Assembly (NCBI GenBank): GCA_933822405.4
Contig: CAKOGP040002313.1
Coordinates: 673,364 to 737,363, forward strand
Direction of reading: 5' to 3'
Length of the DNA: 64,000 nt
Source: Cylindrotheca closterium
Taxonomy: Eukaryota; Bacillariophyta; Bacillariophyceae; Bacillariales; Bacillariaceae
Part shown: in pieces, positions 48,709-55,654 of the stretch
How the letters are laid out: each line of letters starts with the position of its first letter
How positions within the stretch are numbered: the first letter of the stretch is position 1
Program-made: the position numbers and the translations under genes
Notes under the pieces: generated by a model
What the model was told of the DNA's origin: nothing
Databases searched by the model: none
What the model saw: the letters and a program-made list of their open reading frames with translations, nothing else

Positions 48709-51700
48709 CTAAGCATATGCGAATGGTCCGTTCCTTGCGCCAAAAATGTTATCACTGTCGATCGCTTTCTTTATCGCGCCGATTGTAGCTGATAGGGTTG
48801 GTGCAGTGACTTCCTTAAGATGTTCTGCCCGAAGCTTTCCGATACCATGGTGGTGACTCAGTGACCCGCCATGCTTGAGGATTTCGTCTCGTGCCGCCTT
48901 CTCCAACTCAGAAAACACCTCACTCGCATTGTTTACACCTTCAAAACTGAAACAAAGGTAAAAGTACACACATACACCCTCGTGATACAGCTGCGTCACA
49001 CGACTGCCAACAAATGGCAAGCCTGGTAAAAGACGTAATTGATGTTCTTGTAGAATCCGATTCTTTGTTTCACGAATTAATGTGCCAACCCTTGACCATG
49101 GAACGAAAGTTTCAAACGATTCAGCCAGCAAATGATAGGTCATCGCAAAGTCTCGTAAATATGCTATCATAAAAGTGAGATCGTAACCAGCCTTTCCAAT
49201 CTCGGATCCCAACGTCATCCCATCGTGAGCTGCTGATACTTCTCGCATCATTTTCTTTTGAAGATTCACTTCGGAGGCAGTACCTTCATAGCTAATAGTT
49301 GCGCAGACAACCGAGGAAAAATCATATCCTTTGTGCATCGATGATGCAAGCTGGATAATCACTTTTTGCAGGCGGGCTTTTATCGATCCGTCAGCTGGTC
49401 GTAGTGCCTGTCCTAATCTGAAATGAGCGTTATCCAGGAGTCGGACACTTACAGGCTTGTGAGCTCCGAGTCTTTCAACAGCACGCATGAAATGTAGACC
49501 TTCTTCAAAGTTTCTTAGGATGACACTGTCATGTTCGCGGACTTCTGGGAGCGGCCATATTCTGATCACTGCACTGACGATGATTCCCAGGCATCCTTCG
49601 GAGCCAATCATGAGCGAACAAAGGTCGAAGCCTTCGGCTACCCGGCCATGTGCAGTCTTACCAGATTCATCTCCATTCCACAGCTTACCGTTGATTCCAA
49701 CGACGCGAACAGATTTGACGATATCCTCAATGTTGCCATAGCGATTCCTTTTCATTCCACTGGCCTTCGTCGCAATCCAACCGCCCAACGTACTGAACTC
49801 GAAGCTGTCTGGTTCGTGACCCATCGTCCATCCTCTGCGACTAAGTTCTTCTCCAAGCTCCCTCCCTGTGATTCCAGCCTCCACATTCGCAATACCATCC
49901 TCTTCGTTCACCCAAAGGATCTTCTGCATTTTCTTCATGTCCACTGAAATTATTGGCCGTGACTCAACATCGGTTGTCGGGCACCTCGTAGCACTAGAAA
50001 CGTTTGTTCCTCCACCAAACGGAATGAGGCAGTATCCCAGACGTCTTGAGATTGCAACGAGCCTGTCAACATCGATTTCGCTTTGGGGCCAAATCACCGC
50101 ATCAGGAATTCGAAACGACCCTCCCGTTCGGATCAAGTAGATATCTTCTTGTGAATGACCTGATCCATGTCGAACCCGTTCTATCGTCGCAAAAGAAATG
50201 TAGCTGAATTCCTCAGCAAGGTTCTGCTTTTGCGCCACGGTGAATTTGCTGTCATACGGCGTTTGCCAAACGATAGAATTTGAACTAAATTCGTTGAGAG
50301 TTGCCATCCGTATCCGCATTTCTGATTCCATAAAAGGCAATATATTTGGCAATTGCTTTCCACAGAGACCATACCTCTTTCCTTTCATAGAAACGTAGCT
50401 TTGTCTATCCCCGTCACTTTTCAACACAAAGCCGCTGTCGTGGAAGCCCCAAAAGCCCAGATTTTCCATACTGTCACTCAAGCAGTAAGATTGCAATGAC
50501 TCGGGGAGCGGGGAAGTCTTACGTTCGCCTCGGGTGAAAGCTATCTGCCTCATGGATATCGACGCCCAAACAAACAGTAGAGGTAACTTTTCATCGTTCA
50601 ATGATGTTGCGATCTGCAAGATGTAATTTTCGTTGGGGTGTTGATATCCACGCCGATCTATCTCTAGAATCGTTTTATCGACAAGTTTATCACTCGCAAT
50701 AAAGTATTTCCGAAAGATGTCATAAACCGGTCGAACCTTTTGTGACATCTGGCTCGGTCTATCGTTTTCTGATACGATATAATTTAGCCACACAGCCCAC
50801 ATTTTGTGCTCATCAATGAAAAGAGGAGCCAAGAGGTGGCTGCATTGCAAAACAACAGAACATAGAGTCGATTCGTCACTGGGTAGGTGTGGGGTGTTGC
50901 ATTGGAAGCGTTCATCGTCTACTACGGGCCAGAAAGTGCAACCAAGTTGTTCCAACGCCTCGCGGGCTTTCGACTTGTCAACCATACAAATGCTTGCAGT
51001 TGCACTCACATGGTAGTCGGAAATATGAATTTGTGATTGCTGTGCGAGTTGTACTTGCGTCACAAGTGTTCTATAGTCTGCTGGTTGTTGGCATTTCATA
51101 GGAATCGGGATTCCTGCAGCAATATGAACTTTTCCAACAGACACATTTCCCTTCAACACATCCTTGGAAGAGAGAAGTATATTGTGAGTACAGGGCAAAC
51201 CACATATAGCAATGGATCTTTAGGAATCTTCCGTTTACCTGAAGCCAAAGAAATAACCCAGAAAGACTCAACGGTTGGCGAGGAGAACCTACTGCCTCAT
51301 CCGATAGCCGGTTTTGCTCAGGAATCGCCTCGTAGTTCACTGTGATCGGAATGATAGTGTGGCTGTTGCCAGACTCGGCGAGACTCTTCAAAACACCTGT
51401 TTTCCCTTGGATGAAACGGCGATCTCGGCTTCGCTTGCCTTCAAGAAATATCTCAATGCAACTGCCTGGTACCGATGAGTTCTGCTTCTTCAGAGTAGCC
51501 AGTTTAGTCGAAAGACCATCTTCTGGGCTTCCGTTTCCGCGCTGAATAAAGACAGCCCTCAAGTAGTAAGCAAGAATACCAATAAGGGGCAGCTGTTCAA
51601 ACTCTGATGCAGCAATAATGAATGGAATATCCAGTCGCAGCTCTGGTATCGAAAAGAAAAGATAACTCAGCAGTAAGAAGTCAAAAAAGGAACGATGAGT

Positions 51701-54700: not shown

Positions 54701-55654
54701 AATACGCAACTTCTCGATCTGATCGAGAGATGTCGAAATCATTCCAAAGGGATGGACAATCATGATTGCCACAGTCTTCTCTGTTACTGCTTGTTCAATA
54801 CCCTCGCCGTTCCACCAGGTGGATTCACCAATGTCCACTGGAACAAGCTTCAAATTATGCCATTTTGCAACATGTATCATTCCGGGAACAGTTATTGGGG
54901 GAAATACTACCACCTCGGCATTTGGTGGGTACTGCTTGGAACTTAAATATAAATCAAACAGGGATCTGACCGAGAAACCAACTGCCACTTCGTATCCTGT
55001 TGAGTTTTTCCATATATCTTGAATCTCTTTGACCATTACACTACACCTTCCCTGAAGTCCTCTCCACCTCAAGCAGTGATAAAGTGCAAAGAAGAGATCC
55101 AAAAATGAAACATCCAACTTCCCCCGAGGTATCATCGCACGAATTCCGATCAGCCGTAGCGAAGAGGAAAATATTGAAACAAGGAGGTCGAGAGTAGTAG
55201 ACAGAAGGTTCTTGGGTGTGTAGGATTGCGAGTCCATCTTAGTTCTGTCCATGCCCGGTATCCGTGACGCATCTTCACTTTTCAGCGACGATGAATAATT
55301 ATCCTCTGCAGTTTCCGACGAAGATCCAATTTCGGACATGTCCTGCTGTTTACGGAAATCATCCAGTAGAGCTGTGCACCTAGCACCAAGATCGTCGTTC
55401 CGGGACGCCAGCAGTCGAACATACTTTTCCATCGCTTCCTTTTTTGTGTATGACTGACAGGCTTCCCATGCTTGGTATTTTGTTCGAGCTTTTAGCTGGT
55501 AGACGGGAGGAAGTGCATCTCCTGGGCATGGACCCGTTGTGGCATGTTTATAGAGACCATATAAACTTAGTTTTTCGTCCGTAGACGTCGTTTCGCCATT
55601 GGATGGGTCACTATTACGAACCAATGCCGAAACAGTTAGGAAAATTTCTTCCAT
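48709..55654 (-). CDS. Giant ether-lipid synthase: ACBP, PLP (DegT-like), FAR, DHAP acyltransferase, alkyl-DHAP synthase
   Basis: Exon 1 (55654-51239) and exon 2 (51162-48709) flank a 76-nt intron whose splice joins FLWLQ to DVLKGNVSVGKVHIAAG in phase 0, mid acyltransferase; predicted 2289 residues. Domains: acyl-CoA-binding (about 1-95, LYGLYKHATTG, KYQAWEA); DegT/StrS PLP aminotransferase-like (about 180-600, LWEDCAE at 328-333, Schiff-base Lys360 in FFSFGMIK); hydrophobic segments (about 622-676); fatty acyl-CoA reductase (about 735-1220, GATGFVG at 744-750, YAFSK 938-942); GNPAT-type acyltransferase (about 1260-1690, HRSFFD at 1320-1325, FLEGKRS); alkylglycerone-phosphate synthase (about 1705-2289, IPFGGGTNV near 1852, FEFSTLGGWIATKASGM, SHHHGIGKLR near 2242). 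No PTS1 at the C-terminus (GPFAYA). Confidence 0.92.
51163..51238 (-). other. Intron linking the two halves of the ether-lipid gene
   Basis: The donor CAG/GTAAAC and acceptor CTTCTCTCTTCCAAG/GAT (minus strand) have a pyrimidine-rich 3' end and keep phase 0. Without splicing the upstream frame would run on past the last PlsC motif into about 55 codons of unconserved sequence, and the downstream frame would have only a TTG to start from. Both facts support one spliced gene over two overlapping genes. Confidence 0.85.

What the first reader, a model, noticed from the sequence alone, without database searches (positions are those of the whole stretch)
48709..55654. A single gene encodes the whole front half of ether-lipid synthesis
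Seen: one 4416-nt exon and one 2454-nt exon joined in phase carry an acyl-CoA-binding domain, a PLP domain, a fatty acyl-CoA reductase with GATGFVG and YxxxK, a DHAP-acyltransferase with HX4D, and an alkyl-DHAP synthase with its FAD loop and HHHG motif. Known: FAR makes the fatty alcohol, GNPAT makes acyl-DHAP, and AGPS swaps acyl for alkyl; in most eukaryotes these are separate proteins, and a FAR-acyltransferase fusion has been reported in Dictyostelium. Inference: this is a channeling ether-lipid synthase that binds acyl-CoA, reduces one to alcohol, esterifies DHAP with another and makes alkyl-DHAP on one chain. I know of no description of the five-domain form.
Basis: partly seen in the sequence, partly recalled or inferred. 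Interest (0 to 1): 0.95.

Follow-up and report, generated by a model that had tools for sequence, protein, structure and literature searches.

The report
One-chain ether-lipid synthase of diatoms
A diatom gene joins on one protein chain the three enzymes that start ether-lipid synthesis, plus an acyl-CoA-binding domain and an unexpected aminotransferase, and much the same join recurs in other diatoms and in dinoflagellates, so a pathway usually spread over separate proteins may run on one chain in important ocean algae.

Summary
Exons 55654-51239 and 51162-48709 (minus strand), joined over a 76-nt GT-AG intron, encode 2289 aa: ACBP, DegT-type PLP aminotransferase, FAR-type reductase, GNPAT/PlsB-type acyltransferase, AGPS. 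Five relatives, one from a transcriptome, have no gap at the junction. It is not unique: of 120 long homologues examined, 111 carry FAR+acyltransferase+AGPS in one chain, 93 of these also DegT, 56 all five. Catalytic residues are nearly all kept. The assembly search found no second AGPS-, GNPAT- or lipid-DegT-like gene. FAR-GNPAT fusions (ciliates, Dictyostelium, Phytophthora) and the myxobacterial AGPS / FAR-GNPAT operon are in print; ten searches of an open-access library showed no report of the join with AGPS, DegT and ACBP. The PLP domain belongs to a bacterial DegT clade apart from sugar transaminases, often beside lipid acyltransferases and, in one Gemmatimonadaceae MAG, third in a tightly packed AGPS / FAR-GNPAT / DegT / PlsC-like operon. 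Best reading: a membrane-associated alkyl-DHAP synthase; the DegT step is unknown and may aminate a DHAP-type ketone. No activity was tested. New variant of a known kind.

The parts
48709..55654 (-). whole coding region, ATG at 55654, stop 48711-48709, 2289 aa
   Evidence: join; translations; homologue P0003 of 2287 aa, 88% identical over residues 1290-2289
51239..55654 (-). exon 1 (1472 codons)
51163..51238 (-). intron, 76 nt, GTAAAC...TTCTCTCTTCCAAG
   Evidence: five homologues without a gap at the junction
48709..51162 (-). exon 2 (817 codons + stop)
55370..55654 (-). acyl-CoA-binding domain (residues 1-95)
   Evidence: PF00887 64 bits; solved ACBPs; Lys59 K in 59 of 59 rows with a residue there (5 gaps)
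53735..55135 (-). DegT-type PLP aminotransferase domain (residues 174-640); starts at MIPRG, where the bacterial single proteins start
54575..54577 (-). codon of Lys360, predicted PLP lysine
   Evidence: K in 91 of 91 rows with a residue there (4 gaps)
53624..53713 (-). hydrophobic stretch between DegT and FAR, possible transmembrane segment (residues 648-677)
   Evidence: Kyte-Doolittle scan, maximum 2.16; a stretch between DegT and FAR in 10 of 10 DegT-bearing rows among the 12 rows scanned (domain places); no TM predictor was run
52601..53431 (-). FAR-type NAD(P)-binding reductase core (residues 742-1018); GxxGxxG at 744-750, YxxxK at 938-942
   Evidence: PF07993 146 bits; Tyr938 111 of 111 and Lys942 112 of 112 rows with a residue there
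51875..52594 (-). C-terminal part of the reductase module (residues 1021-1260); no Pfam match
   Evidence: part of it (1140-1260) found in 81 of 120 rows
51239..51787 (-). GNPAT/PlsB-type acyltransferase core (residues 1290-1472), HX4D at 1320-1325, EGKRSR at 1405-1410
   Evidence: PF01553 57.8 bits; His1320, Asp1325, Glu1405, Arg1408 in 119 of 119 rows; GPAT1 8e4y 41.5 bits, aligned about 15 residues past the splice junction
50464..51162 (-). C-terminal part of the acyltransferase module, in exon 2 (residues 1473-1705)
   Evidence: contiguous with the core in homologues; found in 87 of 120 rows; no Pfam match of its own
48712..50463 (-). alkyl-DHAP synthase (AGPS) domain (residues 1706-2289); HHH at 2242-2244 (48855-48847)
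   Evidence: PF01565 112 bits, PF02913 97.5 bits; 4bby 435 bits; catalytic positions

Best explanation
A single membrane-associated megaenzyme for the first half of ether-lipid synthesis. The ACBP domain holds acyl-CoA; the FAR-type domain reduces one acyl-CoA to fatty alcohol; the GNPAT/PlsB-type domain acylates DHAP with another; the AGPS domain swaps the acyl for the alcohol to give 1-O-alkyl-DHAP. The DegT-type domain is, by its residues, a competent PLP aminotransferase of a lipid-associated bacterial clade and most likely acts on a ketone of this pathway, but its reaction is not known. Shown here: gene, domains, conserved catalytic residues, conserved fusion, no second AGPS/GNPAT gene detected, no PTS1 and no N-terminal PTS2 by motif. 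Inferred: every activity, substrate transfer within the chain, membrane location, DHAP rather than glycerol-3-phosphate as acceptor.
For: Domains and order. AGPS clearly above D-LDH/glycolate oxidase (435 against 87 bits); positions equivalent to guinea-pig R419, R515, Y578 kept in 117/117, 116/116, 108/109 and HHH615-617 in 109/109, 108/109, 108/108 rows with a residue there (the roles of these residues are recalled). FAR, acyltransferase and PLP residues as in the parts list. 111 of 120 listed homologues carry FAR+GNPAT+AGPS in one chain, 93 of them with DegT; those whose names point to transcriptomes and that hold DegT, FAR, GNPAT and AGPS include P0003, P0045, P0073, P0099, P0104, P0114. 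In the AGPS tree the 29 fusion rows, window included, form one group, SH-aLRT 99. In its own assembly the other two FAD-oxidase_C hits score 98 and 53 bits against the AGPS domain; none of the other ten acyltransferase hits matches the GNPAT core at 1e-3; the best other FAR among the 8 of 13 hits cut out is 36 bits. Precedent for the first two steps in one protein: Dictyostelium FARAT, whose knockout almost lacks neutral ether lipid (passages of PMC7375469).
Against: No activity or lipid data for any of these proteins was found. The FAR_C (PF03015) and GPAT_C (PF19277) domains were not listed, so the reductase and acyltransferase modules are not plain FAR1 and GNPAT. Acceptor specificity cannot be read from sequence. 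The His aligned with guinea-pig H300 is Met in 25 of 118 AGPS rows, though His in the window. The published Dictyostelium FARAT is peroxisomal, this chain has no PTS1 and no N-terminal PTS2 by motif.
Confidence: 0.82

Rival explanations
1. The DegT domain aminates the C2 ketone of alkyl-DHAP (or acyl-DHAP or DHAP), so the chain makes 1-O-alkyl-2-amino-2-deoxyglycerol-3-phosphate, an ether analogue of a sphingoid base phosphate, for later N-acylation.
For: DegT of the Gemmatimonadaceae MAG L045 overlaps the FAR-GNPAT gene by 4 nt and is followed, again with a 4-nt overlap, by a PlsC-like acyltransferase. It stands in the third place, which one other family fills in 15 of 20 such operons with a third ORF; four of the 15 were scanned and are extended SDRs. 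Neighbours elsewhere: AGPS, FAR, a GNAT-like protein and a ketoacyl synthase (L116), PlsC-like and ketoacyl synthase (L117, L118), GNAT-domain protein (L119), PlsY (L128), fusion to a PlsC-like acyltransferase (P0217). Gemmatimonadota: 5 of 6 genomes with this DegT have AGPS, 8 of 298 in all (hypergeometric 1.8e-8).
Against: The co-occurrence test does not correct for kinship: the stretches of G123 and G125 are near-copies, and the AGPS of G123, G125 and G279 is divergent (33% identical); that of G279 falls outside the main AGPS group on a long branch. Cyanobacteria: only 1 of 7 genomes with the DegT has AGPS, 12 of 386 in all, p 0.20. L127 has no lipid gene beside it; in L120 and L124 the one neighbour scanned in each has no Pfam match. 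Of the 80 AGPS loci only L045 showed a DegT. 18 of 111 three-enzyme chains show no DegT, among them Pycnococcus and the Ectocarpus row P0118; most of the 18 are shorter models and may be partial, but P0118, P0087 and P0089 exceed 1900 aa. No such lipid is known to me.
Confidence: 0.2
2. The DegT domain turns the fatty aldehyde of the FAR domain into a fatty amine, a side branch (as in the reductase-transaminase TamH of tambjamine synthesis, recalled).
For: DegT lies directly before FAR in the chain; catalytic Lys and Asp kept.
Against: In L117 and L118 the DegT sits beside an acyltransferase and no FAR match was found in the 19.5-kb stretch; P0217 joins it to an acyltransferase. Its nearest solved structures act on keto sugars.
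Confidence: 0.1
3. The DegT domain is not catalytic here but structural, for dimerisation or membrane anchoring.
For: DegT enzymes are dimers (recalled); the domain was not found in 18 of 111 three-enzyme chains.
Against: PLP lysine and aspartate kept in 91 of 91 rows with a residue there, each; 29 invariant columns across 23 rows of bacteria and algae.
Confidence: 0.15
4. Two neighbouring genes, not one: transcripts end near 51200.
For: No transcript of this species was available.
Against: Five homologues have no gap at the join, one from a transcriptome; the acyltransferase match to GPAT1 runs on into exon 2.
Confidence: 0.03

Closest known systems
FARAT / ART1 / TtFARAT (Dictyostelium, Tetrahymena and others)
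   Same: FAR-type domain followed by DHAP-acyltransferase on one chain; ether-lipid pathway (passages and one section)
   Different: No AGPS, DegT or ACBP mentioned in what I read; Dictyostelium FARAT ends in SKL and is in the peroxisome lumen, ours lacks that ending
Myxococcus operon MXAN_1676-1674
   Same: AGPS next to a FAR-GNPAT protein (passages of PMC9131029); AGPS with one FAR-GNPAT ORF in 27 of 80 bacterial AGPS loci here
   Different: Separate AGPS gene placed before FAR-GNPAT; third gene an NAD epimerase, not DegT; no ACBP mentioned
Mammalian FAR1, GNPAT, AGPS
   Same: Same three reactions; GNPAT and AGPS act as a complex (stated in PMC9131029)
   Different: Three proteins; GNPAT and AGPS steps peroxisomal
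ElbD of Myxococcus
   Same: A multidomain ether-lipid enzyme with FAR-like and acyltransferase domains
   Different: Carries acyl-CoA synthetase and ACP, no AGPS mentioned
DegT/DnrJ/EryC1/StrS aminotransferases (ArnB, perosamine synthase)
   Same: Fold, PLP lysine and aspartate
   Different: Separate clade, 100/100, from seven generic DegT of other bacteria that carry AGPS operons; NCBIfam sugar-transaminase models match far below cut-off (best 44 bits, cut-off 650)

Membership tests
Alkyl-DHAP synthase (AGPS) | FAD-binding and FAD-oxidase_C domains with AGPS-specific similarity | tested here: met
   4bby 435 bits, Dictyostelium AGPS 248, best non-AGPS 87
Alkyl-DHAP synthase (AGPS) | active-site residues (guinea-pig H300, R419, R515, Y578, H615-617; roles recalled) | tested here: met
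   all present in the window
Alkyl-DHAP synthase (AGPS) | alkyl-DHAP synthase activity | not testable with these tools
   no assay
Alkyl-DHAP synthase (AGPS) | peroxisomal targeting signal (usual, recalled; not needed for the chemistry) | tested here: not met
   C-terminus FAYA; the strict PTS2 pattern occurs only at residue 2069, inside the AGPS domain
FAR-type (NAD_binding_4) reductase | NAD_binding_4 match, GxxGxxG, YxxxK | tested here: met
FAR1 orthologue | FAR_C / Sterile domain PF03015 | tested here: not met
   not listed at E 0.01 for the window or for P0003, P0076, P0107, P0085, so I do not file it as a FAR1
GNPAT/PlsB-type acyltransferase | motifs HX4D, EGxRSR and PxxxxYE | tested here: met
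GNPAT proper | GPAT_C PF19277 and DHAP specificity | tested here: inconclusive
   PF19277 not listed at E 0.01; specificity not testable
ACBP | Pfam ACBP match and conserved Lys/Tyr | tested here: met
   Lys59 59 of 59 and Tyr32 60 of 60 rows with a residue there
DegT/DnrJ/EryC1/StrS aminotransferase | fold, PLP Lys and Asp | tested here: met
nucleotide-sugar transaminase subfamilies | NCBIfam cut-off | tested here: not met
   window domain far below every listed cut-off; bacterial kin too
FARAT / ART1 fusion | FAR then acyltransferase in one chain | tested here: met
   the published proteins themselves were not compared

The most novel reading that the evidence does not exclude
The chain is not only an ether-lipid synthase: its aminotransferase converts the DHAP-type ketone of the nascent lipid into an amine, giving algae and some bacteria a hitherto unseen class of 2-amino (N-acylated) ether lipids, ceramide-like but built on DHAP instead of serine, outside peroxisomes.
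Probability: 0.18. Interest if true: 0.93.

Novelty: new variant of a known kind. Interest (0 to 1): 0.73.

Why it matters
Ether lipids in animals start with separate enzymes, GNPAT and AGPS in peroxisomes (PMC9131029, passages). Here the corresponding domains lie in one chain in diatoms and dinoflagellates, with no recognisable peroxisome signal in the window protein, and diatoms have lost the PTS2 import route (PMC7710942, passages). That makes channeling and a non-peroxisomal start of the pathway directly testable in one gene. The added aminotransferase has no place in any ether-lipid route that I know and points to an undescribed reaction or lipid.

Tried and rejected
Viral origin of the AT-rich rows P0112 and P0115 (on contigs of 12-20 kb): four scans of viral contigs confirmed no relative; the patterns of the first three came from poorly conserved stretches, and the fourth was confirmed against P0003 only, so this is weak.

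Bacterial gift against vertical descent of the fusion: the quick AGPS tree puts the 29 fusion rows beside the bacterial operon rows and the two animal rows outside (supports 84 and 83, below its star mark), but the AU test does not reject fusion plus animals as one clade (p 0.414; unfinished, finished). Only three canonical eukaryote rows were in the tree. Left open. In the DegT tree the bacterial rows fall among the algal rows (94/80), so one transfer into algae is not shown either.

DegT tied strictly to AGPS: rejected as a general rule by cyanobacteria (1 of 7). In Myxococcota the DegT was found in 2 of 195 genomes. In one search nine genomes with the DegT were searched for AGPS at 1e-10: G451 gave a divergent match (208 bits), G487 an intermediate one (109 bits), the other seven weak ones that I read as other FAD oxidases.

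Splice choice by open frame: useless, 32 GT-AG pairs are open.

Papers: ten searches of open-access PMC; each listed at most 20 of up to 667 papers that held enough of the terms. No listed title or opening of an abstract reports AGPS fused to FAR-GNPAT. One search was badly framed. No diatom ether-lipid lipidome was found; PMC3587569 (passages) finds ether PE and PC in the anemone, including animals without symbionts; what I saw does not show them for the alga. The passages that I saw of PMC10328945, PMC11868695 and PMC9244630 do not mention the fusion. Kinship of the GNAT-like neighbour to bacterial ceramide synthase was a recalled lead, not tested.

The species of the window is not told; 'diatom' is inferred from the nearest named homologues (Nitzschia).

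Rows dropped: 6 of 126 hits were not listed and so not examined. The AGPS tree used the window, 29 of 120 homologues (28 fusion rows and the rotifer P0116), guinea pig, Dictyostelium, 54 of 80 bacterial loci and L116. The DegT tree used the window and 19 homologues, 7 bacterial lipid-type rows (the two pieces from G451 left out) and 7 generic rows. One search listed 120 of 1119 hits.
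Full report
What is there. On the minus strand, 55654-51239 and 51162-48709 join over a 76-nt intron into 2289 codons and a stop. Pfam finds, in order, ACBP, DegT_DnrJ_EryC1, NAD_binding_4, Acyltransferase, FAD_binding_4 and FAD-oxidase_C, all above their curated cut-offs. The intron has GTAAAC at its 5' end and a pyrimidine tract before its AG. An open frame alone does not fix the splice, since 32 GT-AG pairs, this one included, are open. 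Homologues do: P0003, P0004, P0015, P0042 and P0069 have no gap at the junction, and P0003 comes from a transcriptome. The acyltransferase lies across the junction: with the exons joined, the match to the solved GPAT1 8e4y runs some 15 residues into exon 2.

How common it is. A search with the joined protein, scored on residues 1290-2289 and limited by the tool to proteins of 0.55-1.75 times its length, gave 126 hits, 120 of them listed. By BLAST of seven pieces of the window protein, 111 of 120 carry FAR, GNPAT and AGPS in one chain; of these 93 also have DegT, 60 ACBP, 56 both. Named members with DegT include the diatoms Nitzschia inconspicua, Seminavis robusta, Fistulifera solaris, Thalassiosira oceanica and T. 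profunda, Cyclotella atomus and Skeletonema marinoi, the bolidophyte Triparma, and the dinoflagellates Cladocopium, Symbiodinium and Prorocentrum, the last three without an ACBP match; the green alga Pycnococcus and an Ectocarpus row (P0118) show no DegT. Some short rows may be partial models. Because of the length limit this search cannot count separate genes; Guillardia, a cryptophyte, has FAR and AGPS as two proteins (PMC9244630, passages).

Is it likely to work. Among rows where BLAST finds the domain and the alignment has a residue: PLP lysine 91 of 91 and aspartate 91 of 91; FAR Tyr 111 of 111 and Lys 112 of 112; acyltransferase His and Asp 119 of 119; AGPS equivalents of R419 117 of 117, R515 116 of 116, Y578 108 of 109, and the His triad 109/109, 108/109, 108/108. 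One exception: the H300 equivalent is Met in 25 of 118 rows. The roles of these residues are recalled from the AGPS literature.

Own genome. The 47.6 Mb assembly has three FAD-oxidase_C hits; the other two match the AGPS domain at only 98 and 53 bits. Of eleven acyltransferase hits none but this gene matches the GNPAT core at 1e-3. The best other FAR match, among the 8 of 13 NAD_binding_4 hits that were cut out, is 36 bits. A bacterial lipid-type DegT finds the window domain at 124.5 bits and then 33 bits. So the fusion looks like the only copy of these functions, within the sensitivity of an exon-by-exon search that scores only the best candidates.

Bacterial counterpart. This is the Myxococcus MXAN_1676-1675 arrangement already in print. 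Where a third ORF could be called (20 loci) it is one family in 15, and the four of these scanned are extended SDRs. In L045 (Gemmatimonadaceae MAG) the third ORF is DegT, overlapping FAR-GNPAT by four bases and followed, again overlapping, by a PlsC-like acyltransferase. It is the only one of the 80 loci with a DegT match.

Place in the cell. A hydrophobic stretch lies between DegT and FAR in all ten DegT-bearing rows scanned. There is no PTS1 at the C-terminus and no PTS2 near the N-terminus. Among 121 C-termini only the rotifer row P0116 ends in a clear PTS1, SKL (P0057 meets only my lax pattern, and some models may end early). Diatoms have lost PTS2 import (PMC7710942, passages). A membrane, probably ER, location is inferred.

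Origin. The 29 fusion AGPS rows are one group (SH-aLRT 99). Whether they descend from a bacterial operon or from eukaryotic AGPS is open: AU p 0.414.

Known and new. FAR-DHAPAT fusions were reported in 2011 for ciliates, Dictyostelium and Polysphondylium, Phytophthora and Naegleria, with T. pseudonana and P. tricornutum said to lack them (PMC3143110, one section). Dictyostelium FARAT is a studied ether-lipid enzyme (PMC7375469, passages). In ten searches (listed under Tried and rejected) I found nothing on the join with AGPS, DegT or ACBP. I therefore rate it a new variant of a known kind, with an unexplained domain that could make it more.

Noticed in passing
P0028, P0085, P0086 (Seminavis robusta): Three chains in one diatom; P0085 has ACBP at the C-terminal end and no DegT match, so the module order is not fixed.
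   Followed up: partly
AGPS position 1921 of the window protein: The conserved GHEPDS His is Met in 25 of 118 AGPS rows; I did not sort them by lineage.
   Followed up: no
P0112, P0115: DegT-FAR-GNPAT-AGPS chains with the residue make-up of AT-rich DNA, on contigs of 12-20 kb of unknown owner; no viral match found.
   Followed up: partly
P0217: Bacterial-type protein of 619 aa joining a PlsC-like acyltransferase to a lipid-type DegT.
   Followed up: partly
L116:10075-11337 and L119:7766-9073: Homologous proteins (45% identical), the L119 one with a GNAT domain, directly beside the DegT; possibly N-acyltransferases.
   Followed up: partly
window 55782-57500 +: One ORF with a leucine carboxyl methyltransferase domain followed by a GNAT domain.
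   Followed up: no
window 47095-48660 +: CoA-transferase ORF (two PF01144 stretches) ending 48 nt from the stop of the synthase gene on the other strand.
   Followed up: no
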